Of a stretch of 64,000 nucleotides of DNA, positions 8,918-23,973 are shown one piece after another; the stretch's first letter is position 1, and the number at the start of each line of letters is the position of its first letter. Position numbers and translations under genes: made by a program. The notes beneath the pieces are model-generated. The model was not told the origin of the DNA. It did no database searches and saw only the letters and a list, made by a program, of their open reading frames with translations. The DNA lies in contig NZ_QNQP01000002.1 of assembly GCF_003316635.1 (NCBI RefSeq), forward strand, positions 62,001 to 126,000, written 5' to 3'. This stretch comes from Roseovarius dicentrarchi (lineage in GTDB: Bacteria; Pseudomonadota; Alphaproteobacteria; Rhodobacterales; Rhodobacteraceae).

Positions 8918-9861
8918 TAGCGCTCTCCCTTGTTGAATGGCACCATGAGGGCGGCAGGCACTTCGGCGCGGCGCGACATGACGACCAGCGCGAGGATGGA
9001 CAGGATATAGGGCATCATCAGGAAGATCTGGTACGGGATGCCGGCCCCCAGCGGTGTCTGCTGGACGCGGATTTGCAGCGCGTCGAATGCGGCGAACAGG
9101 ATCGCGCCAAGAAGCGCCTTGCCCGGCTTCCAGGCGCCGAACACGACGAGGGCAATGCAGATCCAGCCGCGCCCGTTTACCATTTCGAAAAAGAAGCTGT
9201 TGAAGGCCGACATGGTCAGGAATGCGCCGCCCACGGCCATCAGGCCGCTGCCGATCATGACCGCGCCCATGCGGATTGCGGACACGGACAGGCCCTGCGC
9301 CGCCACCGCCTGCGGGTTTTCGCCGGCCGCGCGCACGGCAAGGCCAAGGGGCGTGCGGTAGAGGACGATGGCCACCACGGCCACCATGATGAAAGCCAGA
9401 TAGGTCAGCGGGGTTTGCGCAAACAGCGCCGGGCCGATCAGCGGGATGTCTGACAGCAGCGGGATCTCGTAAGGTTGAAACGGTGTGATGCTGGGCGGGC
9501 TGGTGACTTCGGGCAGGGCCAGGCGGTAGGCGTAATAGGTGCTGGAGGTCGCCAGCAACGTGACGCCCAGGCCGACGACATGCTGCGACAGGCCAAACGG
9601 CACCGTCAGGATCGAATGGATCAGGCCGAACCCCATACCGACGGCAAAGGCCACCAGCACGCCGGGCCAGAGGCCAAGGCCCGAATAGACCGCCATCCAG
9701 CCCGCGAAGGCGCCGGCGACCATGATCCCCTCGATCCCGAGGTTCAGGATACCGGCCCGCTCGCAGATCAGCTCGCCCAGCGTGGCAAAGATCAGCGGGG
9801 ACGCGATGCGGATCGCGGCGGTCCAGAAACTGGCGGTCAGGAAGATCTCGAAGATGTCCAT
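8917..9861 (-). CDS. BMP-type nucleoside/nucleobase ABC transporter, permease 2
   Basis: The 314-aa membrane protein belongs to the branched-chain-transporter-like permease family found in YufQ/NupQ-type importers. It has about eight to nine hydrophobic segments and the family loop ERAGILNLGIEG, including the NLGIEG EAA-like region contacting the ATPase. It would pair with the preceding permease to form the channel. It begins with a one-base stop/start overlap and ends with the same arrangement into the deaminase gene, so all five genes form one translational chain. Confidence 0.92.
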   Translation of the reverse strand: MDIFEIFLTASFWTAAIRIASPLIFATLGELICERAGILNLGIEGIMVAGAFAGWMAVYSGLGLWPGVLVAFAVGMGFGLIHSILTVPFGLSQHVVGLGVTLLATSSTYYAYRLALPEVTSPPSITPFQPYEIPLLSDIPLIGPALFAQTPLTYLAFIMVAVVAIVLYRTPLGLAVRAAGENPQAVAAQGLSVSAIRMGAVMIGSGLMAVGGAFLTMSAFNSFFFEMVNGRGWICIALVVFGAWKPGKALLGAILFAAFDALQIRVQQTPLGAGIPYQIFLMMPYILSILALVVMSRRAEVPAALMVPFNKGER

Positions 9862-10910
9862 CAGGCCCTCACCACGCGGAACCGGGTCAGCAAAATTGCC
9901 ACCACCATGAGAAGGAGTGCGGTGGCCAGCATGATGTCCGCCAGATAGGTCGGCACCCCCACCGCGCGGGACATGCTGTCGGCGCCAACGAAAATGCCGG
10001 CCACGAACAGCGCGGCGGCGATGACGCCCAGCGGGTTGAGCAGGGCCAGCATCGCCACGATGATGCCGGTATAGCCAAAGCCGGGGCTGAGGTCCAAGGT
10101 CAGGTTGCCCTTCAGGCCCGCCACCTCGGAGAAGCCGGCCAGCGCGGCGAGGCCGCCGGATAGCAGCGCCGTCTTGATCAGAACGCGGCCCACCGGGATG
10201 CCGGCGAATTCGGCGGCGTTGCGGTTCAGGCCCACGGCGCGCATCTCATAGCCCAAGGTCGTGCGGGCGCTGATGATCCAGACAATAACCGCCGCAATCA
10301 GCGCAAGGCCAAAGCCCCAGTGCAGGCGCAGCCCGTCGATGAGACGGGGCAGGCGCGCCTCGTCAATCAGGCGCGCGGATTTGGGCCAGCCCATACCCAT
10401 CGGATCCTTCAGTGCGCCCTCCAGCAGCATGGATATGAAAAGCAGGAAGATGAAGTTGATCAAAAGGGTCGTGACCACCTCGTCAACGCCAAGACGTACC
10501 TTCAGCAGCGCCGGGATGAGCAGAAGGACCGCGCCGGCAATCATCGCCAAGATCGCCATCACCGGCAAAAGCACGAACGCGGGCCAGTCCAGCAGGCCGG
10601 CACCCAGCACCGCCACCACCAGCGCCCCGGCGTATAGCTGCGCCTCGGCGCCGATATTCCACAGGCGCGCGCGGAACGCCACAGCCACGGCAAGGCCGGT
10701 GAAAATCAGCGGCGTGGCCCGGTTCAGCGTCTCCAGCAGGGCAAATTTGCTGCCGAATGCCCCTTTCAGGATCAGGCCCAGCACCGCGAACGGGTTCGCC
10801 CCGGCAAGCATCGCCAAAAGGGACGCAATCACAACTGTCGTGACAATCGCCAAAGTCGGCGGCGTCAGGGTGCGCGCCAGCGACGGGTTGGCAATAGGCT
10901 CAAGACGCAT
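9861..10910 (-). CDS. BMP-type nucleoside/nucleobase ABC transporter, permease 1
   Basis: The 349-aa protein is the larger of the two YufP/NupP-like permeases, with about nine transmembrane segments and the family sequence ARLWNIGAEAQLYAG. The start was set at 10910 because GAGGAGG lies seven bases upstream, inside the end of the ATPase gene; a frame start at 10925 has no such site. The overlap with the ATPase gene is 11 bases. The inner-membrane channel imports the ligand delivered by the BMP-family lipoprotein-like binding protein. Confidence 0.9.
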   Translation of the reverse strand: MRLEPIANPSLARTLTPPTLAIVTTVVIASLLAMLAGANPFAVLGLILKGAFGSKFALLETLNRATPLIFTGLAVAVAFRARLWNIGAEAQLYAGALVVAVLGAGLLDWPAFVLLPVMAILAMIAGAVLLLIPALLKVRLGVDEVVTTLLINFIFLLFISMLLEGALKDPMGMGWPKSARLIDEARLPRLIDGLRLHWGFGLALIAAVIVWIISARTTLGYEMRAVGLNRNAAEFAGIPVGRVLIKTALLSGGLAALAGFSEVAGLKGNLTLDLSPGFGYTGIIVAMLALLNPLGVIAAALFVAGIFVGADSMSRAVGVPTYLADIMLATALLLMVVAILLTRFRVVRA

Positions 10911-12444
10911 GCGCCGCCTCCTCATAGCCGTGGCCGGCCATCCAGACGCCCAGCTCGGCGGGGCTCATGCTGCCGCGGGCGAAACCGGGCGACAATCGCC
11001 CTTCAGAGATGACATGAATAACGTCCGACAAGGCCATGATTTCATCCAGATCTTCGGATATCAGCAGAACCGCCGCACCGCGATCCCGCGCTGCCAATAG
11101 CTGGCTATGGACGTAATTGACAGCGCCAATATCCAGCCCGCGCACCGGCTGGTTGGCCAGAATGATCTGGGGGGCGCCCTCCATGACGCGGCCAAGGATC
11201 AGCTTTTGCATATTGCCGCCCGACAGTAGGCGAATGCGGGTGCCGGGACCGGGGCAGCGCACGTCGTAACTGGTGATGATGCGGCTGGCAAAATCGCGCG
11301 CGGCGCGCCAGTTCATCCAGCCATGACGGCTGAATGGCGGGTCCTTGTAAGTTTCAATTATGGCGTTCTCCGACAGATCGAAATCCGCAATCGTACCGGT
11401 TTTATGCCGGTCCTCCGGAATGCGGGCGATCCCCGCATGCACCGCTGCGCGGGGCGACCAGTGCAGAATATCGGCCCCGTTCAGGACGAGGGTTCCGGTA
11501 CGGGGCGCGATCATGCCGCCGATCAGATCTGCCAGCGCCGCCTGGCCGTTACCGGACACACCGGCCAGCCCGGTGATCTGTCCGGCAAGCAGCGAAAAAT
11601 CCAACGATTTCAGGCCCGGCGCGCTGCCACGATCCGGCGTGCTGACACCGCGTAAGGACAAAAGCGGCGCACCCGGAACGCCCGGCGCGGCCTTCGGCGC
11701 GCTGACCTCGCCGCCGACCATGCGGGCGGCCAGATCGTGCCGGTCGGTGCCAGACGTTGGCCCCTCATGCACCACCTTGCCGTGGCGCAGGATCACGACG
11801 CGGTCCGAGATTGCCATGACTTCATGCAGTTTGTGCGAGATGAAGATGATCGACAGCCCCAGCGCAATCGCCTTGCGCAGGGTTTCAAACAGATCATTGG
11901 TTTCCTGCGGGGTCAGAACCGCCGTCGGCTCGTCCAGGATCAGGATGCGCGCATCGCGGTAAAGCGCCTTGAGGATTTCCACCCGCTGGCGCTCGCCCAC
12001 GGTGAGCGCGCTGATGCGGGCGTCCGGATCGACGCTGAGCTTGAAATCATTTGCCAGTTGCACAATGCGGGCGCGCGCCGCCGCGCGCCCCAGACCGGGC
12101 GCCCACAAGGGACGGGTGCCCAGCGTCACATTCTCCAGCACGGTCATGTTGTCGGCCAGTGTGAAATGCTGGTGCACCATGCCCACGCCCGCATCCAGCG
12201 CGGCGCGCGGATTGCCGGCGGGCAGGGCGGCGCCCATCACCTCGACGCTGCCGGAATCGGCAGTGTACTGACCGAACAGGATGTTCATCAGCGTTGTCTT
12301 GCCGGCGCCGTTTTCACCCAGAAGCGCGATCACCTCGCCCTTGTGAAGGGTCAGGCTGACCGCGTCATTCGCGGTCAGCGCACCGAATGTCTTGGTAATT
12401 TTATCGAGGCGCAGGACAACCCGCGCCTCTGTTTTATCGGGCAT
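10900..12444 (-). CDS. BMP-type nucleoside/nucleobase ABC transporter, duplicated ATPase
   Basis: The 514-aa cytoplasmic protein has two fused ABC cassettes, as in YufO/NupO and sugar importers. The first cassette has a canonical Walker A (GENGAGKTT, residues 43-51), a VGERQRVEI signature and ILDEPTAVLTP Walker B. The second has the degenerate GVSGNGQAAL Walker A, LLSGGNMQKL signature and a Walker B in which ILANQP replaces the usual ILDEP, so the second site is probably weak or inactive. The start follows the binding-protein stop with no gap. Confidence 0.95.
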   Translation of the reverse strand: MPDKTEARVVLRLDKITKTFGALTANDAVSLTLHKGEVIALLGENGAGKTTLMNILFGQYTADSGSVEVMGAALPAGNPRAALDAGVGMVHQHFTLADNMTVLENVTLGTRPLWAPGLGRAAARARIVQLANDFKLSVDPDARISALTVGERQRVEILKALYRDARILILDEPTAVLTPQETNDLFETLRKAIALGLSIIFISHKLHEVMAISDRVVILRHGKVVHEGPTSGTDRHDLAARMVGGEVSAPKAAPGVPGAPLLSLRGVSTPDRGSAPGLKSLDFSLLAGQITGLAGVSGNGQAALADLIGGMIAPRTGTLVLNGADILHWSPRAAVHAGIARIPEDRHKTGTIADFDLSENAIIETYKDPPFSRHGWMNWRAARDFASRIITSYDVRCPGPGTRIRLLSGGNMQKLILGRVMEGAPQIILANQPVRGLDIGAVNYVHSQLLAARDRGAAVLLISEDLDEIMALSDVIHVISEGRLSPGFARGSMSPAELGVWMAGHGYEEAAHAS

Positions 12445-13479
12445 TTATTGTGACTTCGGCTCTTCATCGTTGATTTCGACGACAAATTCGCCGGACATGA
12501 TCTCGCCTGTGCGGGCCTCGACCAGATCAATCGCCTCTTGCGGCACCTTGCCCTTGAACGTGCCCAGCGGGGCCAGTTCGGCGCCGCCTTCCTTCATGTA
12601 GGAATAGGTGCCGTAATCTGCTGCCTCGAACGTGCCGGCGCGGACCTGTTCGATGGCCATGTTCAGCGTCGGCTCGAAATTCCAGATCGCCGAGGCCACG
12701 ACCGTATCGGGGTACTGCGCCTGCGTGTCGATCACGTTGCCGATGGCCAGAACGCCCTTTTCCACAGCGGCATCGGACACGCCAAACCGCTCTGCATAAA
12801 GCATGTCGGCGCCGTTTTCGATCATGGCAAAAGCGGTTTCCTTGGCCGCGGGCGGATCGAACCACGACCCGATGAAGCTGACCTGGAATTTGGCGTCGGG
12901 GCGCGTTTCGCGCACGCCGGCCATGAAGGCGTGCATCAGTCGGTTTACCTCGGGAATGGGGAAGCCGCCGATCAGGCCGACATTGCCTGTCTCGGTCATG
13001 GAACCTGCAATGATTCCCGTCAGATACGAGGCGTCCTGAATGTAATTGTCGAAGACGGCGAAGTTTGGCAGCGCGCCATCTTCCTTGAAGCTGGATCCCA
13101 GAAGAAACGCGATTTCGGGGTATTCGGCCGCCACTTCGCGCGCCTCTTGCTCGACGGCGAACGCCTCCCCGATGATCAGCTTGTAGCCGCTTTCGGCATA
13201 TTCGCGCATGACGCGGGCATAGTCGGTGTTGCTGACATTTTCCGAAAAGGCATAGTCGATATCACCGCGCTCGGCGGCGGCGGTGGCGGCCTTGTGCAGG
13301 CGGCTGACCCATTGCTGTTCAACGGGAACCGTATAGATGCCCGCGCATTTGATCGGCTCTGCCGCGAATGCCTGCGGCGCGCCCCAGAACAGACCGGCGG
13401 TCAGCGCGGCGGCAGCGGCGGTGGCCAGAAATCGGCGGCGCGTCAGGCCGCGCTGCTGTGTCGGTGCCTTGGTCATCAA
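12445..13479 (-). CDS. BMP-family substrate-binding protein of the nucleoside/nucleobase importer
   Basis: The 344-aa periplasmic protein belongs to the Bmp/PnrA-like family, whose members bind purine nucleosides or related bases. The N-terminus has a twin-arginine-like signal (LTRRRFLATAA, then a hydrophobic stretch and AFAAE), so Tat export is likely; no lipobox Cys is visible. It is the first gene of the five-gene operon ending in the CodA-family deaminase. Together they suggest uptake of a modified base or nucleoside followed by deamination. Confidence 0.92.
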   Translation of the reverse strand: MMTKAPTQQRGLTRRRFLATAAAAALTAGLFWGAPQAFAAEPIKCAGIYTVPVEQQWVSRLHKAATAAAERGDIDYAFSENVSNTDYARVMREYAESGYKLIIGEAFAVEQEAREVAAEYPEIAFLLGSSFKEDGALPNFAVFDNYIQDASYLTGIIAGSMTETGNVGLIGGFPIPEVNRLMHAFMAGVRETRPDAKFQVSFIGSWFDPPAAKETAFAMIENGADMLYAERFGVSDAAVEKGVLAIGNVIDTQAQYPDTVVASAIWNFEPTLNMAIEQVRAGTFEAADYGTYSYMKEGGAELAPLGTFKGKVPQEAIDLVEARTGEIMSGEFVVEINDEEPKSQ

Positions 13480-14265: not shown

Positions 14266-14421
14266 TGCGTGCGAGCCGGATTGTTTCGCTGACAGCGCAG
14301 TGCTGTCCTTATCCCGTTTGCGACTTGCGTGATCGGGGCATCTCGGACATGGCGCGCTGGGGTTCGACATGGCTTGGCCCTCGCAGGATTTCGGCCTATT
14401 GTGCGCCGGGGCAGGGGCGCT

Positions 14422-15423
14422 ATGACACAGTCAAATTACATTCCCAAAGGGGCGGCAAGTTTCAAGATCGCGCGCGTTGCGGCGCCGTGCGTGTTCGATT
14501 TCGTTCTGCTTCCCAAATTGACGATGCTGGCCCTGTCGGCGGCGATCGAGCCGTTGCGCGTGGCCAACCAGATATCCCAGCAGGAGTTGTACCGCTGGCG
14601 CACGATGACGCCCGGTGGCGCGCCCGTCCGCTGCTCGAACAACCTATCGCTTGAGGCGGATGCGCCGCTTGGACCGCCCGCACGGGGCGCGCGGGCCTTC
14701 ATCTGCTCGGGGGTGGAGCCAGCCGATACCATTGATCCGGTGGTCACGCAATGGGCGGCGCGGCAGGCGGCGCATGGCACGCCGGTCGGCGCAATCTGTA
14801 CCGGTGCCTTTACACTGGCGCGGGCCGGTTTGCTGCGCGGGCGCACGTTTACGCTGCACTGGGAAAACCAGCCCGCCTTTGTGGAGGCGTTTCCGGACCT
14901 TGTTCCAACACCCAACCTTTATGAGGTGGACGGCGATCTGATGACGGCGGCGGGCGGGTCTGCCTCCACCGACCTGATGCTGAGCGTGATCGAAGAGGAT
15001 TACGGGCATGATTTTGCGCTGGTCGTGTCGGATATGTGCCTGCACGGGCGCAGCCATTCAACCCATGCGCCGCAGAAAACGGCCCGGTCCGCCGTGATCG
15101 GCAGCCGCAACCGGCACCTGATTGCCGCGATGCGCCTGATGCAGCTTAACCTGGAGGAGCCTCTGAGCGTCGAGGAAATCGCCAGCGAGGTTGGCATATC
15201 CAAACGCCAGCTTGAGCGCAGTTTTACCCAGCACACGGCCCTCAGCCCGCGCCGCTACTATACCGACATGCGGCTGGCGCGCGCCTATTCGCTACTGTCC
15301 GAGACGGACCTTCCGATCGCGGAAATCGCCGCCGCTACCGGTTTTGGCGGCACGTCCGCCTTCGCGCGGGCGTTCCGCGCTAAATTCGATACGGCGCCGG
15401 GTAAATTTCGCAAGCGTTGGTAG
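14422..15423 (+). CDS. GlxA-type transcriptional regulator (DJ-1/PfpI domain + AraC HTH)
   Basis: The 333-aa protein combines an N-terminal class I glutamine-amidotransferase-like domain (about residues 18-190, with GAICTGAFTLARAGLL around the nucleophile elbow) with a C-terminal AraC/XylS DNA-binding domain (about 230-333; two helix-turn-helix units, SVEEIASEVGISKRQLERSF and AEIAAATGFGGTSAFARAF). Such regulators often control catabolism of betaine, carnitine or amino-acid derivatives. It converges on the decarboxylase/ATP-grasp/C45 operon with a 27-bp gap and may regulate it, though convergent position alone is weak evidence. Start at ATG 14422. Confidence 0.9.
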   Translation: MTQSNYIPKGAASFKIARVAAPCVFDFVLLPKLTMLALSAAIEPLRVANQISQQELYRWRTMTPGGAPVRCSNNLSLEADAPLGPPARGARAFICSGVEPADTIDPVVTQWAARQAAHGTPVGAICTGAFTLARAGLLRGRTFTLHWENQPAFVEAFPDLVPTPNLYEVDGDLMTAAGGSASTDLMLSVIEEDYGHDFALVVSDMCLHGRSHSTHAPQKTARSAVIGSRNRHLIAAMRLMQLNLEEPLSVEEIASEVGISKRQLERSFTQHTALSPRRYYTDMRLARAYSLLSETDLPIAEIAAATGFGGTSAFARAFRAKFDTAPGKFRKRW

Positions 15424-15450: not shown

Positions 15451-16440
15451 CTACTCTGCCGCCGCACGCCCCTCGGGGGTGTAGATAATGCGGGTATCCT
15501 CGCGAAAATCGTGCAGGTCCAGCGGCCAGGCAGCCTGCGGCCAGCGCAGCTCCATCTGGCGGGCGCGGGGCCGGTAAACGGCCGTGTAGAGCGTGCCGAA
15601 CCCTTCATCAAAGCGCGGTGAATACAGCGGCGGGCGCAGGAAGGCGCGCACGAATTTATCCTGCGATTCGACGTGCAAGGTCAGGCGTTGCAACAGATAC
15701 CTTTCGCGCTCGACCGTGGCGGTAAAGCGGGCATGGCTGGACCACTCAACCCGGTCCTGATGATTGGTAGCAACCGCCTGATGGGTGATCTGCGTCCTGC
15801 GGTCGGGCGCCATCAATGCGGTCAAGAACTTGCGCTTGGCGTCGATGACGGTCACGTTATAGCTCATATGCGTCGGCACGCGGGCCAGAACGCGCCCCGC
15901 CTCGGCGGTGGTTTCACAGGTTTGCAGCACATAGCGCAGGATCAGCGGCACGCCAAACCCCTCGCCGACAACGCGGCGGCCGCCAAAGGTCAGCGACAGC
16001 GCCAGCCCCGCATCGTTGATGCCATCGACCAGCCCCCACAGCCCGTCCGATGTGCCCATCACGGCGCGCCCCTGCCAGTTTGTGCGCAGGATCAGGCTGT
16101 CAAATGCCTTGGCGGAATAGTCGTAATTGCGCACCAGCATCGGCTCTGCGCCGGGCCAGATTGCTTGACTGCATCCTGACAGATACGGCGGCGGGCAGTA
16201 AAAACTGAGGAAGCGGGCAGCGTGGTCGGTGCCGCCGGACAGTTCAACCAACTGGTCATAAATTGGCACAAGCTCAGGCATATGCGCGCGCAGCGCCTTG
16301 CGGCTGTCCAGATATCCTGGGCGCGCCGACGCGCCCTCGCGCGCCCACCAGCGATGGTAATCGGGCCAGTATTGGTGAAACAGCCCGGCCCATTTCGGGC
16401 CGGGCGCATCCTCGGATATCGCGCGCCAATGAAGCTGCAC
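15451..16440 (-). CDS. C45-family Ntn-hydrolase/acyltransferase (IAT/Tan-like)
   Basis: The 329-aa protein resembles isopenicillin-N acyltransferase and carcinine/beta-alanyl-amine hydrolases, which self-cleave to expose an N-terminal Cys. The SGCSQAIW segment puts the likely nucleophile at Cys90, and LVRNYDYS at 103-110 is the family's R-N-x-D motif. IVDGINDAG-like and TDHAARF features also fit. Translation starts at GTG (16440), only five bases after the ATP-grasp stop, with no clear Shine-Dalgarno sequence, so it is probably coupled. It would hydrolyse or transfer an acyl group on an amide made by its neighbours; the substrate is unknown. Confidence 0.85.
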   Translation of the reverse strand: MQLHWRAISEDAPGPKWAGLFHQYWPDYHRWWAREGASARPGYLDSRKALRAHMPELVPIYDQLVELSGGTDHAARFLSFYCPPPYLSGCSQAIWPGAEPMLVRNYDYSAKAFDSLILRTNWQGRAVMGTSDGLWGLVDGINDAGLALSLTFGGRRVVGEGFGVPLILRYVLQTCETTAEAGRVLARVPTHMSYNVTVIDAKRKFLTALMAPDRRTQITHQAVATNHQDRVEWSSHARFTATVERERYLLQRLTLHVESQDKFVRAFLRPPLYSPRFDEGFGTLYTAVYRPRARQMELRWPQAAWPLDLHDFREDTRIIYTPEGRAAAE

Positions 16441-16445
16441 AGGCG

Positions 16446-17903
16446 CTACAGGATCTTGAAGGCCGGATCGGCCAGCGCCGGCCCTGCTTCGGCGGTGGGC
16501 ATGGCGCGGCCCCGAACGCCGGCCTTCAATCCGTGAATCCAGCGCCTGCTACGCTCGGTCAGCTTGAACCCGTTGGTCATGGAGCGTCCGCGCGTGACCA
16601 GAATTCCAATATCGGCGCCCTCATAGCGGTAATCGCCCGGTTGCAGGATGCGCAGAAAAAACGCCTCATTCTCGGACTCGACGGCGCGGCGGTGATAATC
16701 AAACCGGTTGAAATCGACACTGCCGTCCTCGTTCATGCGGTAGATGCCGGTTTCGGGGACTTCTGTTGCGATATCAACGGTATCGTCGGTATGTTTGATC
16801 ACCATCTGCGACCAGCTGTCGATCATCTTGGGATCGGCCCAGCGGTCATTCAACTCGGCAATGTCCAGCGTGAATCGCTTTTTGGAGAATTCCAGCAGGT
16901 GAAACAGGAACAATGGCGCATCCGCATGGGCAAAGGCGGCGTGGTTTGTCATCGAACTGGCGCCGGTGATGCGCGGATTCAGCTCGCCCAGCCAGATATC
17001 GCCGGTTTTCTTGTCGATCAGGAAGTCCAGCTCGAAATAGCCGCGATAGCCCTCCTTGCGCAGCTGCTCACCGAATTTGAAGGTCAGCTCGCGCGCCTTC
17101 TGGCGTGTTTTCGGGGGGAAGGCGGTGCTGAAAATCTCATTCCCGCACCATCCGCCGCGATAGGGGGTCAGTTCCTTGAAGCCGACAAGTTCGGTCATCA
17201 GCGGGCCGACGATGGTGCCTTCCTTGGTTGCGCAGGCCTCGATCGCGCTGCCGCGGCAGTCGATCCGCTTCATGATCTTGATCTCGCCCTGACCCACGAT
17301 TTCATGCTCGTGGCGGCGAAAATCGGCCTTGGATTTGATGAAAAATGTCGTGTGTCCGCTATCGCCATAGGCCGATTGCAGCACCAGATCATGGCCCAGC
17401 CCGGCAGTATCGCAGATATCCTTCAGATGGTCATAGCTTTCGACCACGCTCAGCGTGTTCGGCACTGATGGCACGCCCGCCTTGTTGCCGATGCGGACCG
17501 TCTCGATCTTGTTGTCCATCTGCTGGCGCAGCTTGGCCTTGGGAAACCATATTTCGGCGCCCAGTTCCTTGGACAGGCGTTCGGTTTCCTCGTCAAACAT
17601 CAAGAAGACGAATTTCGGCTTCCCGCCGCGCCGTTTGATCAGGTCAATGACCTCTTTGTGTTGTAGCAGATAGTTGTTGATATCCTCGATGGACTGAAAT
17701 TCGGCGTGGGGCTGTTCACTGGGCACGAACGTGTTGGGGTGGCGGCCGCCATAGCAATCTATGTAGCTGATATATTTGAAGTTCTTGCACCACTCGTCCA
17801 GCCCGAGCAGGTTGAAATTGGTGGCGGAAATGAAGTAAATCGGGTCCTCGTTGCGGTGAAAATGACGGCGGATTTCTGAGATATTCTTGAGCTCGGATGC
17901 CAT
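16446..17903 (-). CDS. ATP-grasp ligase of unknown substrate
   Basis: This 485-aa cytoplasmic protein has an ATP-grasp core: DNK at 130-132, the nucleotide loop LQSAYGDSGHTTF at 175-187, the metal-binding strand YFELDFLID at 289-297 and ELNPRITGAS at 307-316. The N-terminal 120 residues (ISATNFNLLGLDEW, YIDCYGGRHP) form a distinct substrate domain. It has no biotin-carboxylase partner domains, so that common label is unlikely. ATP-grasp enzymes activate a carboxylate as acyl phosphate and join it to an amine or thiol. Position between an amino-acid decarboxylase and an amide hydrolase suggests an amine-carboxylate ligase such as a carnosine-synthase-like enzyme. Confidence 0.85.
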   Translation of the reverse strand: MASELKNISEIRRHFHRNEDPIYFISATNFNLLGLDEWCKNFKYISYIDCYGGRHPNTFVPSEQPHAEFQSIEDINNYLLQHKEVIDLIKRRGGKPKFVFLMFDEETERLSKELGAEIWFPKAKLRQQMDNKIETVRIGNKAGVPSVPNTLSVVESYDHLKDICDTAGLGHDLVLQSAYGDSGHTTFFIKSKADFRRHEHEIVGQGEIKIMKRIDCRGSAIEACATKEGTIVGPLMTELVGFKELTPYRGGWCGNEIFSTAFPPKTRQKARELTFKFGEQLRKEGYRGYFELDFLIDKKTGDIWLGELNPRITGASSMTNHAAFAHADAPLFLFHLLEFSKKRFTLDIAELNDRWADPKMIDSWSQMVIKHTDDTVDIATEVPETGIYRMNEDGSVDFNRFDYHRRAVESENEAFFLRILQPGDYRYEGADIGILVTRGRSMTNGFKLTERSRRWIHGLKAGVRGRAMPTAEAGPALADPAFKIL

Positions 17904-17930
17904 GATAGATCTCTTTCGTTAAATTTCTGA

Positions 17931-20690
17931 TTACAGCTTGGCGCGGGCGACGTTCAGTTTCAGCCGGGCCTGATTTGCCTCGCCCGCGCGTTCCAGCGCA
18001 TCCTGCGTGAACACCCGCAGGCCCAGATCGCCGCGATAGCCGTGGATTTCGCTGACATCGAGCGCCCGCATGAACGACAGGATTTCGGCGCTGACCACCT
18101 GGCCCGGCACCAGAATGGGAAATCCGGGCGGGTAGGGGATGATGAACTGCGATGACACCACTTCGGCGCCGCTGGCCATGGCGTCATGGATCGAGCCGTC
18201 CAGTTCCAGATAGTCGCAATTTTTCTCGTCATAGCTGAGGAAAAATGCCGAGCGGATGTCCCCCTCCGGCGTCTCGGACCCCGAGCGGAACGCATCGTGA
18301 AACCGGCTGAAATCGGGCAGGGGGGGCAGGTCGTCCATCAGGTTCGACACGCGTTTTTGAAATCCGCGCCGCTCCATCATCGACGCGTCATCCTGCAATT
18401 CGTCCAGCTCGCGCGCGATTTCGACCAGCACTTCGATCAGGTAGGCGACCGAGGATCGCGTGGTGCCGATATTGGTCATGAACAGCACGGTGTTGCGCGA
18501 TGTCTTGTTGATCTGGATGCCGTATTTATCCATCAGGATATCGGTCTTGAACGTGTCGCCGTCCCAGCCGGTGCCGCCCACGGCCAGCGTCACGCGGGTG
18601 GCATCCAGCACGAATTCGTCGCTTTCCCAGCAATCCCAGATATCGGTCCAGCCCTGTTCGGCGTCGTAATAGCTGCTGACCCCGCTTTCGCGGTGCTCTT
18701 CGGGGATCATGTCGCCGGTGGCCAGCACCTTGAAGTATTTTTTCAGCAAGGGGTGCGTGGCAATCGCGCGGCGCATCGACATCGCGGCCTCGACCTGCCG
18801 CTGGACAAATTCGAAGCCTTCCAGTTCGACCTGGCGCCGTCCCACATCCAGCGAGGCGATGATCTGGTAGTTGGGCGAGGTGGAGGTATGGGTCATGTAG
18901 GCTTCGCGAAAGGACGCCTCGACCTCGCCTTTGAAATCCTGATCGTTGACGTGGATCATCGACCCTTGGCGCAGCGATGTCAGCGTCTTGTGCGTCGATT
19001 GGGTGGCATAGACGCGCACCCGCGCGGTTGGCGGCGGGATCAGCCGTGTGTTCAGAAGCGTTTCGGTATCCGCGTCTTTCAGCTCAGTCTGCTGGGCGGC
19101 ATAGGCGGCGGCGTGATCGTCGCTGCGCAGCCGTTCGCGCAGCACGTTGGCGGCGTTCATCGCCGTGCGCTGCCGGTAGGTGGGGTTGAACCGGGCAAAG
19201 GCGAACCACGCCTCGTCCCACAGGAACACCAGATCCGGCTTGATGGCCAGGCATTCCTCCATCACCCGCTCGACGTTGTAGACAATGCCGTCAAAGGTGC
19301 AGTTGGTCAGCAGCAACATGCGCACGCGGTCCAGCTTGCCGGCGGCCTTCAGCTCCAGCAGCTGCTTCTTCATCTCGCGCAGCGGCACGGCGCCGTACAT
19401 CGAGTATTCGTTCAGCGGGTAGCTGTCTAAGTAACAGACCTGCGCCCCCGACAGGACCATGCCGTAATGGTGCGATTTGTGGCAATCGCGGTCGATCAGC
19501 ACGATATCGCTGGGCCGGATCAGGCCCTGCACGACGATCTTGTTGCAGGTCGAGGTGCCGTTGGTGGCAAAATAGGTCTGTTTTGAGCCAAACGCCCGGC
19601 TGGCAAGGCGCTGCGCCTCTTTTATAGGGCCAATCGGCTCCAGCAGGCTGTCCAGCCCGCCGGACGTGGCCGAGGTTTCGGCCAGAAAGATGTTCGAGCC
19701 ATAAAACGCGCCCATGTCCTGGATCCAGTGCGAGCGTGAGATGGATTTGCCGCGGCTGATCGGCATGGCGTGGAACACGCCGGTGGGCTGTTTGGAATAT
19801 TCCACCAGCGCCGTGAAAAACGGCGTTTTATAACGGGACTGCACGCCGCGGATCAGGTTCAGATGCAGTTCCAGAAAATCCTCCTGATTGTAGAACACGC
19901 GGCGGCAGATCCCCAGATCCAACCCGGCGATATCCTCGACCGAGCGGTCGGTGATCAGGTAGGCGTCCAGTTCCGGGCGCACGCGGGCGATCATGCGGCA
20001 CAGTTCGGGGCCATAATTGCTGGGGTCCAGATCCTGAAGCGCCTCCATACCGCCGGCGCTTTTCAGGTAGCGGGACAGGATCGGCAGATCCAGTTTCGAC
20101 TCCAGGATCAGGCCGGGGCGCACGACGATGGCCTGGATGTTGTGGTTGAACAGCACCCCCATCAATGCGTCCTGAAGGCTGGGCACAACCACCGTTTCGT
20201 AATGAAAGGGATCCTCGGGGCGGCGCATGCGGCTGAAATTCGACTTCAGCCAGCGTTCCTGATGCTCGTTCATGTTGTCGACGATCATCACTTCGAAATA
20301 TGGCTTGGTATGCGCGCGCGCCTCCAGCGATTGCATTGCCTCATCTTCGTGATCGTCAGAATCGGCGCCGTCGCGGTCCAGCGGAATTTGGCGGCGTCTG
20401 TAGGCGCCGCTGGTCAGCGCGCGGCTGATGCGCTGCACGGTAAAGGCCAGATCATCGTAATGGCCCGCATCGAACGTGCGCCGCAGCCCGTCAAAGGCGG
20501 CGGTTCCGGGAAAGGCCCAGTATGCCTCGATCGGGGCGAGGGACGTCAGCAATTCGTCGGTTTTCTTGATCATGGATTTTGCCATGCGACCGCCTTCGGA
20601 GCGGACCAGCGCGGCAGTAGACTCGCGCAGCGCGCTCCAGCGGTCAGCGCGCAGCTGCACGGCCGAGTAGTAGTCTGTCATGGACTGCAT
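17931..20690 (-). CDS. Large Orn/Lys/Arg-type PLP decarboxylase (919 aa)
   Basis: The product is a fold-type I Orn/Lys/Arg decarboxylase family member, about 160-200 residues longer than biosynthetic or acid-inducible lysine/arginine decarboxylases. An extra N-terminal region (about 1-125) precedes a receiver-like wing domain (YFEVMIVDN ... ILESKLDLPILSRYL). The PLP core has TNGTSTCNK, Asp492 in DEAWFAF and Lys568 in TQSTHKTLTS, the Schiff-base lysine. It is first in an operon with the ATP-grasp and C45 genes (gap 27 bp) and should make an amine from a basic or related amino acid; the exact substrate is not evident. GGGAAAATGA precedes the ATG; a second in-frame ATG is at 20681. Confidence 0.92.
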   Translation of the reverse strand: MQSMTDYYSAVQLRADRWSALRESTAALVRSEGGRMAKSMIKKTDELLTSLAPIEAYWAFPGTAAFDGLRRTFDAGHYDDLAFTVQRISRALTSGAYRRRQIPLDRDGADSDDHEDEAMQSLEARAHTKPYFEVMIVDNMNEHQERWLKSNFSRMRRPEDPFHYETVVVPSLQDALMGVLFNHNIQAIVVRPGLILESKLDLPILSRYLKSAGGMEALQDLDPSNYGPELCRMIARVRPELDAYLITDRSVEDIAGLDLGICRRVFYNQEDFLELHLNLIRGVQSRYKTPFFTALVEYSKQPTGVFHAMPISRGKSISRSHWIQDMGAFYGSNIFLAETSATSGGLDSLLEPIGPIKEAQRLASRAFGSKQTYFATNGTSTCNKIVVQGLIRPSDIVLIDRDCHKSHHYGMVLSGAQVCYLDSYPLNEYSMYGAVPLREMKKQLLELKAAGKLDRVRMLLLTNCTFDGIVYNVERVMEECLAIKPDLVFLWDEAWFAFARFNPTYRQRTAMNAANVLRERLRSDDHAAAYAAQQTELKDADTETLLNTRLIPPPTARVRVYATQSTHKTLTSLRQGSMIHVNDQDFKGEVEASFREAYMTHTSTSPNYQIIASLDVGRRQVELEGFEFVQRQVEAAMSMRRAIATHPLLKKYFKVLATGDMIPEEHRESGVSSYYDAEQGWTDIWDCWESDEFVLDATRVTLAVGGTGWDGDTFKTDILMDKYGIQINKTSRNTVLFMTNIGTTRSSVAYLIEVLVEIARELDELQDDASMMERRGFQKRVSNLMDDLPPLPDFSRFHDAFRSGSETPEGDIRSAFFLSYDEKNCDYLELDGSIHDAMASGAEVVSSQFIIPYPPGFPILVPGQVVSAEILSFMRALDVSEIHGYRGDLGLRVFTQDALERAGEANQARLKLNVARAKL

Positions 20691-21077
20691 TCATTTTCCC
20701 CGTTGATGGCGGCAGATCAGGACGGGGCGCGGGGGGATTGGGGCATCCTGATCATCCGCATTCATTGTTATCTATGTCGTCGCCGGCCTTGGATCACTCC
20801 CGCACCCCGATAAGCAGCCGGTAGGGTTTCAACTGGTGCGTCGGGTAATTGTTCCGCTGATCGCAGCCCGCCCGGCTGCACGGACGCCGCGGCCAAACTG
20901 CACGCAGGCCCGGTCACGCGGTTGCACAGGGGCAGGGCGAAGGGCGTCATATCTGCCGGTTCCTTGATGGTTCACACAGCGGTTCGATAACCCTACGCCA
21001 GATGGAATTGAAAAAACAACAGTGTATGTCGGGCGCTGTTTACAGTGGAGTGGAGTGGCGCGGCGCGTGCTGACCGA
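20691..21077. other. 387-bp intergenic stretch with no recognised gene
   Basis: No convincing coding region is visible on either strand. It must contain the promoter of the decarboxylase operon. On the minus strand AACAG (21040-21036) and CTGTT (21022-21018) can pair ahead of TTTTTT (21016-21011), a weak candidate terminator for the upstream histidine-kinase gene. Confidence 0.5.
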
Positions 21078-22442
21078 TCACTTGAGAATCGGCAGCCGGA
21101 CGGTCGCGCGCAATCCGCCCTCCGCGCGGTTTTCCAGCGTGATCGCGCCGCCATGCGCTAAAACAATGGTGCGCGTGATCGCCAGCCCCAGACCCGCGCC
21201 GCCGGTCGCAATGCTGCGGCTGTCGTCGCCGCGCGTGAAGGGGTGGAACATCGCCTCCAGCCGGTCTTCGGGGATGCCGGGGCCGGTGTCGTCGATGGTC
21301 ACGACGGCATGCTGCTGCGCCTGCGTCAGCGTGACTGTCGCGGCGCCGCCGTATCGCAGGGCATTGTCGATCAGGTTGCCAATGGCGCGGCCCAGCCCGA
21401 CACGTCGGCCCAGTATCCGCAAACCGGGCGCGCCGTGATAGGCCGCGCCGCGATCCGCACAAATCCGGCTTAGCAGGCCCTCCAGATCAAGCGGCTCCAT
21501 CGGTTCGGCATCGCGGCCATCCTTGGCGTAGGTGACCAGCCCATCCGCCATCACCGTCATTTCGTCCAGGGTGCGCACCATTGCGGCCCTTTGATCGTCA
21601 TCTTCGACCATCTCGGCGCGGATGCGCAGGCTGGTCATCGGTGTGCGCAGATCATGGCCCACGGCAGCAATCATGCGCATACGTTCGGCGTCGAATTGCG
21701 AGATTTCGGCCTGCATGGCGTTGAAGGCGCGCGCCGCCTCGCGCATCTCGCGCGCGCCGGCCTCCGGCACCCGCGCGCTGCGGTCGCCGCGCCCGGCAGC
21801 CTGTGCCGCCTGCGACAGTTGCCGCAGCGGCCGGGTCAGCTGGCTGGCGAAGACAGTGCCAACGCCCAGCACGCTAAGCAGTGACAGGCCAAGAAAGGTC
21901 AGAAACGGACGGCTTTTGATGCCGGCGGCGCCGGGGTGCCGCATCGCGCCGCGCGCGATGACGTTCAGCCATTGCGGCTGCCCCGCCTTGGCTGAAAGCG
22001 GGACGGTCACGGCAATCATCGGGCGGCCGGGCGTCCCGTTATCGCGGGCCTGCATGGCTGACGCGGGCAGGCGGCTGATCTGCGCGGCAAAGACATCGCC
22101 GCGCTCCAGCGCCTCCCTCAGGCCGTTGCTGATAGCGACAGACCGGCGGTCCGCCGCACTTTCATTCAGCAGCGGTTCATGCTCAACCCGCACCCGCACG
22201 TGCCGGTTCGACGCCTCGCGCGCGATCACCTGCCGCGTGGGTGCGTCCACCGTTTCCAGCACCGGGACAAGCGCCGCAATGCGTGTGATCCAGCGGTCCT
22301 CGATCGCCTGCCTGTCAAACCGCTGCTGCTGAAGGCTGAGGACGGCCAGCCCGATCAGATTGGCGGTCAAAATGGCGGTCGCAAGCAACAAGATGAACCG
22401 CCCCGCCAGCGTATCGGGCACAAGGCGGCGGAACGCGGCCAT
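21078..22442 (-). CDS. Two-component sensor histidine kinase (EnvZ-like)
   Basis: The 454-aa inner-membrane kinase has TM1 at about 15-37, a periplasmic sensing domain at 38-180, TM2 at 181-203, a HAMP domain at 204-255, the phospho-acceptor His263 in AAVGHDLRTP, and an ATPase domain with GNLIDNALRYG, DDTGPGIP and GGAGLGLAI. The ATG shares one base with the response-regulator stop (TGATG), so the earlier in-frame start at 22490 is unlikely. The signal is unknown. A divergent EF-hand gene next to the operon suggests a calcium connection. Confidence 0.94.
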   Translation of the reverse strand: MAAFRRLVPDTLAGRFILLLATAILTANLIGLAVLSLQQQRFDRQAIEDRWITRIAALVPVLETVDAPTRQVIAREASNRHVRVRVEHEPLLNESAADRRSVAISNGLREALERGDVFAAQISRLPASAMQARDNGTPGRPMIAVTVPLSAKAGQPQWLNVIARGAMRHPGAAGIKSRPFLTFLGLSLLSVLGVGTVFASQLTRPLRQLSQAAQAAGRGDRSARVPEAGAREMREAARAFNAMQAEISQFDAERMRMIAAVGHDLRTPMTSLRIRAEMVEDDDQRAAMVRTLDEMTVMADGLVTYAKDGRDAEPMEPLDLEGLLSRICADRGAAYHGAPGLRILGRRVGLGRAIGNLIDNALRYGGAATVTLTQAQQHAVVTIDDTGPGIPEDRLEAMFHPFTRGDDSRSIATGGAGLGLAITRTIVLAHGGAITLENRAEGGLRATVRLPILK

Positions 22443-23161
22443 CACCCGGCCTCCGTCACATCGGCGACCAGCCTGTATCCGCCGCCCCATTCCGTCACCA
22501 GGATTTGCGGGTTTTTCGGGTCTGACTCGATCTTGCGGCGCAGGCGGCTGATCTGGTTATCAATGGCGCGATCATAGGCTTTGGCCTCGCGTCCGGCCGT
22601 CAGATCCAGCAGGGTCGCCCGGCTTAGCACGGTGCGCGGCTGGTCCAGAAATATCCCCAACAGGCGGTTTTCAGCGCTGGTCAGCTCCACATCCGGCGCG
22701 CCCGCGCGCGTCAGCCGCAGCGTGTCGGGATCATGCACCCAGCCGGCAAACCCGCGCAGGCCCGCGGGCGGCGCGGCGATTTCGGGCGGCGCGCGGCGCA
22801 GGATTGCCCGCACCCGTGCCAGCAACTCGCGCGGGTTGAACGGCTTGACCAGATAATCATCGGCGCCCAACTCCAACCCCACGATGCGGTCCGTTTCATC
22901 GGCCATCGCCGTCAGCAGCAAAACCGGCGGCCCATCCGTGGCCGCCAGCCAGCGGCACAGGCTCAGCCCGTCTTCGCCCGGCATCATGATATCCAGAACC
23001 ACCAGATGTATCGTCGCCTCGGCCAGAACCTCGCGCGCCTCGGCGGCATGGGCGGCCAGACGGGTGCGAAACCCCTGCTTGCGCAGATACTGGCCCAGCG
23101 GCTCGCGAATGTCGCGGGCATCGTCAACGATCAGGATCTGGGGCGCGATAGGATCTGTCAC
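22442..23161 (-). CDS. OmpR-family response regulator
   Basis: The 239-aa regulator has an N-terminal receiver domain with Asp13-Asp14 acid pocket, phospho-acceptor Asp57 (VVLDIMMPGEDG), and Lys106 (YLVKPF), followed by an OmpR/PhoB winged-helix domain ending in VTEWGGGYRLV. It is the first gene of the pair, with the cognate kinase overlapping its stop. The 242-bp region upstream is shared with the divergent EF-hand gene and holds several inverted repeats that could be its binding sites. Confidence 0.94.
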   Translation of the reverse strand: MTDPIAPQILIVDDARDIREPLGQYLRKQGFRTRLAAHAAEAREVLAEATIHLVVLDIMMPGEDGLSLCRWLAATDGPPVLLLTAMADETDRIVGLELGADDYLVKPFNPRELLARVRAILRRAPPEIAAPPAGLRGFAGWVHDPDTLRLTRAGAPDVELTSAENRLLGIFLDQPRTVLSRATLLDLTAGREAKAYDRAIDNQISRLRRKIESDPKNPQILVTEWGGGYRLVADVTEAG

Positions 23162-23210
23162 GGTTTGGCTTCCCGGCTGTGCCTTAACTCTGTACCGTGC
23201 TTTATTGCAC

Positions 23211-23268
23211 TGATTTTATGAAAAAAATCAACGGGCAGGGTGGTGATTTGCGATTTGAATTGTCGCAA
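23211..23268. promoter_or_regulatory. Inverted repeats in the divergent region between regulator and EF-hand gene
   Basis: TGATTTT-N6-AAAATCA (23211-23230) and TTGCGA-N9-TCGCAA (23248-23268) lie between the two divergent start codons. They are candidate operators for the adjacent response regulator; no consensus is known to me, so the assignment is inference from position and symmetry. Confidence 0.4.
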
Positions 23269-23403
23269 TATGTATCAGCCTTGGCACTTGTGACACCTGG
23301 CGACAAACGGATGGTGGCGCTGACAAACCTTCCGGCGCAACATCGCCTAAGTAGGGATCACGCAGGCAATGACTGCCGCATCACACCCTCGAAAGGATAC
23401 GAC

Positions 23404-23973
23404 ATGACATATTCCAAAATCATCCCCGGCACTCTGGTTGCCGTGGTCGCGCTTGCCTCCGGGCTGACATTTGCCAATGCGCAGACAGCACCGAACACAG
23501 CACCCATGCAGATGGAGAACACCGCGCAGGGCGCCATGGCAACGCGCGCCGATTATCGCCGGGGTCACGGCAAACGTGGCGGACACGGGATGATGGGCCA
23601 GATCATGCGCCAGGCCGACGCGAATGGCGACGGTGCCGTAACGCAGGATGAAATCGACACATTCCGCGCCGGACTGGTGGCGAATGCCGATGCGTCCGGC
23701 GATGGCGACATCTCGCTCGATGAGTTTCAGACCATATATCTTGAACTGACGCGCGAGCGGATGGTCGATATGTTCCAGAAGCTTGACGCGGACGGCGACG
23801 GCGTGGTGACGCAGGCCGAGATGGACAAACGCTTTGGCAATATCGTCGAGCGGATGGATCGCAACGACGATGGCAAGCTGAGCCGCGACGACAAGCGCGG
23901 CCACGGTGGCAAAGGGCACGGTGGCAAGGGACAAGGCCGCGATGGCGAGCGCAAAGGCAATCGCAGCGACTGA
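23404..23973 (+). CDS. Secreted calcium-binding protein with four EF-hands
   Basis: The 189-aa protein has a signal peptide (cleavage near ANA, residue 26) and four EF-hand loops at 72-83 (DANGDG), 96-107 (DASGDG), 128-139 (DADGDG) and 152-163 (DRNDDG), each with Asp/Asn at the calcium-coordinating positions and Glu or Asp at position 12. The tail (164-189) is rich in Gly, His and Lys. It should bind Ca2+ in the periplasm or outside the cell. GAAAGGA precedes the ATG; a longer frame from 23197 runs through the promoter region. It is divergent from the two-component system. Confidence 0.92.
   Translation: MTYSKIIPGTLVAVVALASGLTFANAQTAPNTAPMQMENTAQGAMATRADYRRGHGKRGGHGMMGQIMRQADANGDGAVTQDEIDTFRAGLVANADASGDGDISLDEFQTIYLELTRERMVDMFQKLDADGDGVVTQAEMDKRFGNIVERMDRNDDGKLSRDDKRGHGGKGHGGKGQGRDGERKGNRSD

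What the first reader, a model, noticed from the sequence alone, without database searches (positions are those of the whole stretch)
15451..20690. Uncharacterised decarboxylase / ATP-grasp ligase / C45 Ntn-hydrolase operon
Three tightly spaced genes (gaps 27 and 5 bp) encode an oversized Orn/Lys/Arg-type decarboxylase, an ATP-grasp carboxylate-amine ligase and a C45 autoproteolytic hydrolase of the family that includes isopenicillin-N acyltransferase and beta-alanyl-amine hydrolases. Read together they could decarboxylate an amino acid, join the amine to a carboxylate, and later cleave or exchange the amide: a make-and-break cycle for an aminoacyl-amine such as carnosine/carcinine-like compounds or an acylated polyamine. 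A GlxA-AraC regulator converges on the operon. I know of no described pathway with this exact set.
Basis: partly seen in the sequence, partly recalled or inferred. Interest (0 to 1): 0.78.

Follow-up and report, generated by a model that had tools for sequence, protein, structure and literature searches.

The report
Conserved four-gene amide catabolism cassette
These three genes are what is left, in this marine bacterium, of a strictly conserved but apparently undescribed four-gene enzyme set, probably used to break down an amino acid through a temporary amide bond.

Summary
In detail: decarboxylase (DEC), ATP-grasp enzyme (GRASP) and C45 hydrolase (C45) lie on the minus strand at the stated coordinates. 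They form one unit. Of 292 sampled genomes of the order, 58 carry this GRASP type, and all 58 have DEC and C45 in the same stretch. In 57 of the 58 a nitrilase-superfamily gene (NIT) is present. The window is the only exception, and it keeps NIT's leader and first five codons.

In 39 of 39 examined halomonad loci the cassette sits inside the ectoine-degradation cluster. Elsewhere it is often near class III aminotransferases or PuuR-like regulators.

DEC is not an ordinary Orn/Lys/Arg decarboxylase: the Glu proposed to bind the cationic side chain is Asn in 51 of 51, with arginines nearby.

Best reading: GRASP makes an omega-amide, DEC decarboxylates the amide-bearing amino acid, aminotransferase and dehydrogenase finish the chain, and C45 (normally with NIT) releases an omega-amino acid such as GABA. 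Linkage is shown; substrates and order are inferred. The AraC gene is probably not part of it. My paper searches found no description of the set.

The parts
17931..20690 (-). DEC: PLP-dependent decarboxylase of the OKR_DC_1 family, 919 aa; PLP lysine Lys568 (S-T-H-K) at 18987-18989; pocket signature Asn728 to Arg732 at 18495-18509
   Evidence: full-length relative of Rv2531c (PDB 9n0o, 822 bits)
16446..17903 (-). GRASP: ATP-grasp enzyme (NCBIfam PRK06524, named 'biotin carboxylase'), 485 aa
15451..16440 (-). C45: autoproteolytic Ntn-hydrolase, 329 aa; nucleophile Cys90 at 16171-16173
20936..20950 (-). NIT remnant: ATG plus four codons (M-T-P-F-A) of the lost nitrilase-superfamily gene
   Evidence: Matches the NIT start of L047; no other NIT match in the window better than E 0.6
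20951..21024 (-). conserved leader upstream of the lost NIT gene
   Evidence: Part of an 89-bp match with L047 6065-6153, 85%
20770..20935 (.). 166 bp without a match to L047, in place of the NIT body
20691..20769 (-). conserved spacer before DEC
   Evidence: Matches L047 from 7133 on
14329..15423 (+). GlxA/AraC regulator, GbdR-like; convergent neighbour, probably not part of the cassette
   Evidence: beside the cassette in 5 of 80 named loci and 2 of 58 order loci

Best explanation
DEC, GRASP and C45, together with the NIT gene lost from this genome, are one catabolic cassette. GRASP uses ATP to put an amide (for example gamma-glutamyl-like) on the omega-nitrogen of an alpha,omega-diamino acid or a close relative. 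DEC removes the alpha-carboxylate of that amide-bearing amino acid. A class III aminotransferase and an aldehyde dehydrogenase turn the new amine into an acid. C45, in most genomes with the NIT amidase, takes the amide off again and releases an omega-amino acid (GABA, beta-alanine or 5-aminovalerate), which the same aminotransferase type sends to central metabolism. SHOWN: the four genes travel together, keep their catalytic residues, and have an aminotransferase nearby in many loci; DEC has an altered pocket; the window lacks NIT. INFERRED: the substrate, the acid that is attached, the order of steps, the part of the neighbouring enzymes, and that C45 and NIT act as hydrolases here.
For: Linkage: 58 of 58 order genomes with this GRASP have DEC and C45, 57 have NIT; 80 named loci have DEC 80, C45 79, NIT 76, the gaps lying on cut contigs; protein distances of the four families correlate at r 0.88-0.95. 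Catalytic residues. Pocket: the Glu of 'VEKTG' is Asn in 51 of 51 DECs, Arg732 in 50 of 51, Arg574 in 50 of 50 with a residue there, which suits a neutral or anionic far end such as an amide better than a cation. Neighbours: a class III aminotransferase in 41 of 80 named loci, 26 of them with one directly 3' of C45; one example of the latter passes PRK07483 and one GABA transaminase passes TIGR00700; PuuR-like in 14 of 80; doeC and doeD next to the cassette on the same strand in 39 of 39 halomonad loci. Three DEC-less clusters (L143, L144, L150) carry instead a racemase-like protein, D-amino acid dehydrogenase, ketoacid decarboxylase and aldehyde dehydrogenase, another way to shorten an amino acid by one carbon. 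PylC, an ATP-grasp that acylates lysine's epsilon-nitrogen (role recalled), is among the tied fold matches of GRASP. C45 is closest in fold to isopenicillin-N acyltransferase, which removes an aminoadipyl amide (recalled); NIT is closest in sequence among solved structures to Nit2, an omega-amidase (recalled).
Against: No substrate is known for any of the four. The role of LdcI Glu526 rests on docking and an older proposal (PMC5607190, passages read). Arg732 is not kept in Rv2531c. The L143-type clusters hold a 2-oxo-arginine decarboxylase and an agmatinase-type ureohydrolase, which speak for a guanidino substrate there, and L047 has a Lys/Arg/Orn-type binding protein. A further DEC-less cluster, L149 (Cupriavidus), has NIT, GRASP and C45 but not the ketoacid-decarboxylase set, and the paralogous loci L032-L035, L131, L154 and L156 have no DEC either. 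39 of 80 named loci show no class III aminotransferase in their flanks (some are short contigs), and a doeC-like or ALDH-like dehydrogenase was seen in only 4 and 3 of 80. The halomonad doe location may be one old insertion inherited by all. GRASP could use another acid, or bicarbonate. Two amidases in one route is more than the scheme strictly needs.
Confidence: 0.35

Rival explanations
1. One reading: DEC first makes a free diamine or agmatine from a basic amino acid, GRASP then protects it as an amide, the amine is oxidised, and C45/NIT release GABA or a homologue.
For: OKR family match; PuuR-like regulator in 14 of 80 and GABA transaminase in 22 of 80 named loci; L047 has a Lys/Arg/Orn-type binding protein that passes TIGR01096; ureohydrolase near the cassette in L129 and L132.
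Against: The acidic pocket residue is Asn in 51 of 51 DECs and two arginines are conserved. DEC scores far below every Arg/Lys/Orn decarboxylase cut-off listed (best 215 against 968). PuuR-like proteins are below the PuuR cut-off (142 and 148 against 211).
Confidence: 0.22
2. DEC is an acidic amino acid decarboxylase (glutamate to GABA, or aspartate to beta-alanine), or decarboxylates a gamma-glutamyl amide to a GABA amide as in butirosin biosynthesis (recalled); GRASP and C45 load and unload the glutamyl or aspartyl unit.
For: Arg574, Arg732 and Asn728 in the pocket; GABA transaminase in 22 of 80 and a glutamate-synthase-like gene (named by eye; such a gene is annotated in L147) in 24 of 80 loci; the doe pathway ends in aspartate (PMC3187862, passages); TAXI-type binding protein in 40 of 80.
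Against: Free glutamate would need neither GRASP nor C45 nor NIT; three DEC-less clusters carry arginine-type genes.
Confidence: 0.17
3. Biosynthesis: the cassette makes a stable aminoacyl-amine (osmolyte, signal or storage compound) and C45/NIT edit or recycle it.
For: In some genomes the cassette stands among genes that look unrelated (L133, L136, L151, L155; judged by eye from ORF starts), and it stands beside nifHDKEN on a Rhizobium plasmid.
Against: Transporters and transaminases are the commonest recurrent neighbours in the named loci and a degradation cluster in the halomonads; two amidases suit breakdown better.
Confidence: 0.15
4. GRASP is a bicarbonate-dependent amine carboxylase (PurK-like) and the hydrolases act on a carbamoyl or guanidino derivative.
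Against: The stretch after E-N-P-R that reads I-Q-V-E-H in pyruvate carboxylase reads I-(T/S)-G-A-S in most GRASPs, so the bicarbonate base (recalled) is missing.
Confidence: 0.08

Closest known systems
Rv2531c of Mycobacterium tuberculosis (PDB 9n0o/9n0n)
   Same: Full-length match to DEC (822 bits over residues 14-908), same Asn and Arg574-type changes; described as a probable amino acid decarboxylase of unclear activity (PMC12910592, passages).
   Different: Lacks Arg732. Whether the other three genes lie near it was not tested.
Puu pathway (gamma-glutamylated putrescine, E. coli; recalled)
   Same: Ligase, oxidation of the free end, amidase release of GABA, GABA transaminase, PuuR-type regulator.
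   Different: PuuA is a glutamine-synthetase-type ligase and PuuD a class-I glutamine-amidotransferase-type hydrolase (recalled). Here an ATP-grasp, a C45 hydrolase and a nitrilase-type amidase, plus a built-in decarboxylase.
Ectoine degradation doeABX-doeCD (Halomonas elongata, PMC3187862, passages)
   Same: In 39 of 39 examined halomonad loci the cassette stands between doeX and doeC.
   Different: In H. elongata doeX, doeC and doeD bear consecutive gene numbers; the cassette is not part of the described pathway.
Isopenicillin-N acyltransferase (C45; PDB 2x1c)
   Different: 10% identity in that alignment; fungal penicillin enzyme; substrate not expected to be shared.
PylC, PurK and biotin carboxylase (ATP-grasp)
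   Different: 8-17% identity in the listed rows; the name 'biotin carboxylase' in annotations is not supported by the residues after E-N-P-R.

Membership tests
Orn/Lys/Arg decarboxylases (OKR_DC_1) | Domain score and PLP lysine motif S-x-H-K | tested here: met
   249 bits, cut-off 27; Lys568 in 50 of 50 with a residue there
Orn/Lys/Arg decarboxylases (OKR_DC_1) | Curated cut-off of an Arg, Lys or Orn decarboxylase model | tested here: not met
   Best LdcC 214.7 against 968; arginine decarboxylase 179.8 against 1167; SpeF 141.5 against 1310
Orn/Lys/Arg decarboxylases (OKR_DC_1) | Acidic residue for the cationic side chain (LdcI Glu526) | tested here: not met
   Asn in 51 of 51 DECs; its role rests on PMC5607190 passages
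Rv2531c-type decarboxylases | Full-length similarity, including the long N-terminal part | tested here: met
   Residues 14-908 aligned, E 5.5e-246
PRK06524 'biotin carboxylase' family | Curated NCBIfam cut-off | tested here: met
   753 against 684
Biotin carboxylase (function) | Residues after E-N-P-R that hold bicarbonate | tested here: not met
   (T/S)-G-A-S in most of 62 GRASPs instead of Q-V-E-H; their role is recalled
C45 autoproteolytic acyltransferase/hydrolase | Curated cut-off and N-terminal-nucleophile Cys | tested here: met
   170 against 85; Cys in 60 of 60
C45 autoproteolytic acyltransferase/hydrolase | Self-cleavage and amidase or acyltransferase activity | not testable with these tools
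   Needs purified protein
Nitrilase superfamily (NIT, in relatives) | CN_hydrolase domain and Glu-Lys-Cys triad | tested here: met
   117 bits, cut-off 23, for the NIT of L042; triad in 49 of 49 relatives; gene absent from the window
Puu pathway | PuuR regulator above its cut-off | tested here: not met
   142 and 148 against 211 for the two examined
Puu pathway | GlnA-type ligase and PuuD-type hydrolase as the amide enzymes | tested here: not met
   The ligase candidate has an ATP-grasp fold; the hydrolases are C45 and nitrilase types
Ectoine degradation (doe) | Cassette inside the cluster | tested here: met
   39 of 39 examined halomonad loci; the L139 doeA and doeB pass their cut-offs. No doeA, doeB or doeX was seen at the window's cassette or at the other 57 order loci

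The most novel reading that the evidence does not exclude
A new catabolic strategy for alpha,omega-diamino acids: an ATP-grasp enzyme tags the omega-nitrogen with an amide, an Rv2531c-type decarboxylase acts only on the tagged amino acid, and a C45 Ntn-hydrolase plus an omega-amidase remove the tag. It would give the Rv2531c-type decarboxylases their first substrate class, and in halomonads it would open a side branch of ectoine breakdown from diaminobutyrate to beta-alanine.
Probability: 0.3. Interest if true: 0.78.

Novelty: new variant of a known kind. Interest (0 to 1): 0.62.

Why it matters
A tightly linked set of four enzymes without an assigned reaction deserves attention. This one is common: a GRASP of either type is in about a fifth of the sampled genomes of the order (60 of 292) and about a quarter of the sampled halomonad family (40 of 151), and GRASP relatives lie on 32 plasmid records, mostly rhizobial. 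It bears on how marine bacteria use basic amino acids, ectoine or polyamines. It corrects a misleading annotation ('biotin carboxylase'). It gives a genomic context to a decarboxylase family with a solved structure but, in the paper I could read, no known activity. The doe linkage makes the question directly testable in halomonads.

Tried and rejected
Rejected: carnosine/carcinine-like product as the leading idea (no neighbour that I identified supports it). Rejected: AraC as part of the operon (5 of 80 named loci; 2 of 58 order loci; next to a sarcosine-oxidase/GcvT-type flavoprotein in L050, and one gene away from it in L051). Rejected: biotin carboxylase function. Weakened: arginine as DEC's direct substrate, which I favoured until the pocket comparison.

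Led nowhere or unclear: C45 by sequence has no convincing relative in the PDB, only by fold. Fold matches of GRASP are tied and do not choose between acids. Nine searches of the PMC library ran: (PDB codes, Rv2531c). On the cassette: one search gave 5 papers, none about it by title and start of abstract; searches gave 0; (C45/PRK06524 terms) gave 6, judged by title and start of abstract. (ectoine, doe) matched 26 papers, 15 listed, of which I read passages in three: PMC3187862, PMC13188858 (no 'decarboxylase', 'ATP-grasp', 'biotin carboxylase', 'nitrilase' or 'C45' in its main text, although it surveys ectoine gene neighbourhoods) and PMC10228743. Passages in PMC7866039 and PMC8503589 did not help. 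The paper on the Rv2531c structure (PMC12329521) is not held. The upstream flavoprotein of L047 had no NCBIfam match at the 1e-30 limit used, so 'opine oxidase' stayed a guess.

Limits: in genome contigs only the best 80 of 434 relatives were returned, all close (85-96%). The class and phylum draws include the window's own genome and close kin. My ORF picker mis-framed some genes, so neighbour counts were redone by tblastn. Counts of neighbours depend on flank length (10 kb or less; about 6 kb in most order loci). Distance correlations are raised by kinship alone. In the three L143-type clusters the 'NIT' is a carbon-nitrogen hydrolase that I also used as a query, so its kinship to NIT was not tested independently.

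Rows dropped: the order set leaves out G282 and G196, which hold only the paralogue (45 and 44%); the halomonad set leaves out G1367 (48%). In one search one of the 58 (L039) has DEC in the stretch but not between NIT and GRASP. In one search the label 'DEC in locus' for L145, L146 and L148 rests on 41-51% matches.
Full report
What is there. The minus strand carries DEC (17931-20690), GRASP (16446-17903) and C45 (15451-16440), with gaps of 27 and 5 bp. DEC belongs to the OKR_DC_1 family of PLP decarboxylases. GRASP passes the NCBIfam model PRK06524, named 'biotin carboxylase', and C45 passes C45_proenzyme. Upstream lies a two-component system and downstream, convergent, a GlxA/AraC regulator.

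The three genes are one unit. A draw of 292 genomes of the order gave GRASP matches in 60. Two of these hold only a paralogue (44-45% identical). In the other 58, all examined with wider flanks, DEC and C45 are in the same stretch as GRASP in 58 of 58, and NIT in 57 of 58; 56 have the order NIT-DEC-GRASP-C45, one (L039) has DEC elsewhere in the stretch, and one is the window. Among 80 named loci, DEC is found in 80, C45 in 79 and NIT in 76; the missing ones (L055, L079, L109, L120 for NIT, L089 for C45) lie on cut contigs. In class-wide and phylum-wide draws, which include the own genome and close kin, GRASP is in 11 of 385 and 11 of 398 genomes. Most of the distant loci that I fetched keep several of the four genes, some in changed order. 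Pairwise distances of the four families correlate at 0.88-0.95 (kinship alone also raises such values). On the GRASP tree DEC is in 51 of 62 loci, on both sides of the midpoint root, and its presence needs four or five changes.

The lost fourth gene. NIT is a nitrilase-superfamily protein with its Glu-Lys-Cys triad in 49 of 49. In the nearest relative, L047 (uncultured Roseovarius sp., GRASP 96% identical), NIT runs from 6139 to 7131, just before DEC. The window keeps the 74-bp leader and five codons, then 166 bp of unmatched sequence, then the spacer before DEC. Neither NIT type has an orthologue in the own genome: the best matches are 27-32% identical. The own genome has a second GRASP (45%) with a C45 (47%), and no NIT was found beside it, whereas three related paralogous loci (L033-L035) have one. 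So this genome lacks NIT in both places. The deletion rests on one assembly.

Catalytic state. DEC keeps Ser-Thr-His-Lys and the Asp-Glu-Ala-Trp stretch; GRASP keeps Glu307, Asn309, Arg311 and Asp293 in 62 of 62; C45 keeps Cys90 in 60 of 60 and its Arg-Asn-Tyr-Asp stretch in 59 of 60, one row having a gap. The three window genes have full open frames.

The DEC pocket. Aligned with arginine and lysine decarboxylases, the Glu of 'VEKTG' (LdcI Glu526) is Asn728 in DEC, and the Ser of 'FSQAS' is Arg574. Across 51 DECs, Asn728 is in 51, Arg732 in 50 and Arg574 in 50 of 50 with a residue there. Rv2531c shares the Asn and the Arg574 change but not Arg732. PMC5607190 (passages read) names Glu526 as a probable lysine-binding residue, from docking and an older proposal. 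This is my main reason to doubt a free cationic substrate. No structure of DEC was predicted.

Neighbours. In the 80 named loci: TAXI binding protein 40, fused TRAP permease 41, USP 27, glutamate-synthase-like 24; class III aminotransferase of the PRK07483 type 28, of which 26 directly 3' of C45, GABA transaminase 22, PuuR-like 14, any class III aminotransferase 41. In the 58 order loci, with shorter flanks, the same two aminotransferase types were seen in 10 and 7. In all 39 examined halomonad loci the cassette stands between doeX and doeC-doeD; doeA and doeB are also seen in 38. In H. elongata itself doeX and doeC are neighbours (PMC3187862, passages). In three DEC-less plasmid clusters (Roseateles, Shinella, Sinorhizobium), GRASP and C45 stand with a ureohydrolase, a 5-guanidino-2-oxopentanoate decarboxylase, aldehyde dehydrogenase, D-amino acid dehydrogenase, an ornithine-racemase-like protein and a carbon-nitrogen hydrolase. 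A fourth DEC-less one (Cupriavidus, L149) has NIT, GRASP and C45 without the ketoacid decarboxylase. On a Rhizobium leguminosarum plasmid the set lies beside nifHDKEN.

Mechanism. Two different gene sets for shortening an amino acid by one carbon, DEC with aminotransferase and dehydrogenase, or racemase with D-amino acid dehydrogenase, ketoacid decarboxylase and dehydrogenase, are found with the same GRASP and C45. That fits a common need: an omega-nitrogen kept as an amide during the shortening and set free at the end. The pocket of DEC fits an amide-bearing substrate. The likely products (GABA, beta-alanine, 5-aminovalerate) fit the transaminases nearby. The acid attached and the order of steps are guesses.

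Known or new. DEC's closest relative with a solved structure is Rv2531c, of unclear activity (PMC12910592, passages). My searches of the PMC library found no description of the set; papers outside that library were not searched. The families are known; the combination appears undescribed.

Noticed in passing
L032 (own genome, contig C11, 192000-209000): A second GRASP (45%) and C45 (47%) pair in the same genome, beside a trimethylamine-methyltransferase-like gene (230 bits, cut-off 525) and two OYE-type oxidoreductases, with a DctP-type TRAP transporter; no DEC or NIT seen there.
   Followed up: partly
L148 9201-14471: The DEC-GRASP-C45 set stands next to nifHDKEN on a Rhizobium leguminosarum plasmid, with an ABC transporter and an amidase downstream.
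   Followed up: partly
L145 11992-16391: Rhizobium leguminosarum OyaliB keeps DEC and GRASP, but after a short ORF there are IS30 and ISNCY transposases where the rest of C45 is expected.
   Followed up: no
L146 12001-15672: Two GRASP-like stretches in tandem (58% and 46% to the window's) before C45 on a clover Rhizobium plasmid.
   Followed up: no
Sinorhizobium medicae plasmids, hits H25, H26, H28-H32: Only a partial GRASP match (39-40% of the query, in two pieces), which looks like a decayed copy.
   Followed up: no
window 7643-13479: Minus-strand BMP/PnrA-type ABC transporter (binding protein, ATPase, two permeases) with an amidohydrolase; the binding protein, ATPase and amidohydrolase are also in L047.
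   Followed up: no
window 21078-23973: Sensor kinase and response regulator with a divergent EF-hand protein, upstream of DEC where L047 has a Lys/Arg/Orn-type ABC transporter and a flavoprotein.
   Followed up: no
L047 830-5323: A flavoprotein with a C-x-C-E-E stretch and a Lys/Arg/Orn-type ABC transporter before NIT; an opine or arginine uptake set is a guess.
   Followed up: partly
L050 4577-5911, L051 4609-5880: FAD oxidoreductase directly upstream of NIT; the one in L050 resembles L-pipecolate oxidase (445 bits, cut-off 600), the one in L051 is 76% identical to it.
   Followed up: partly
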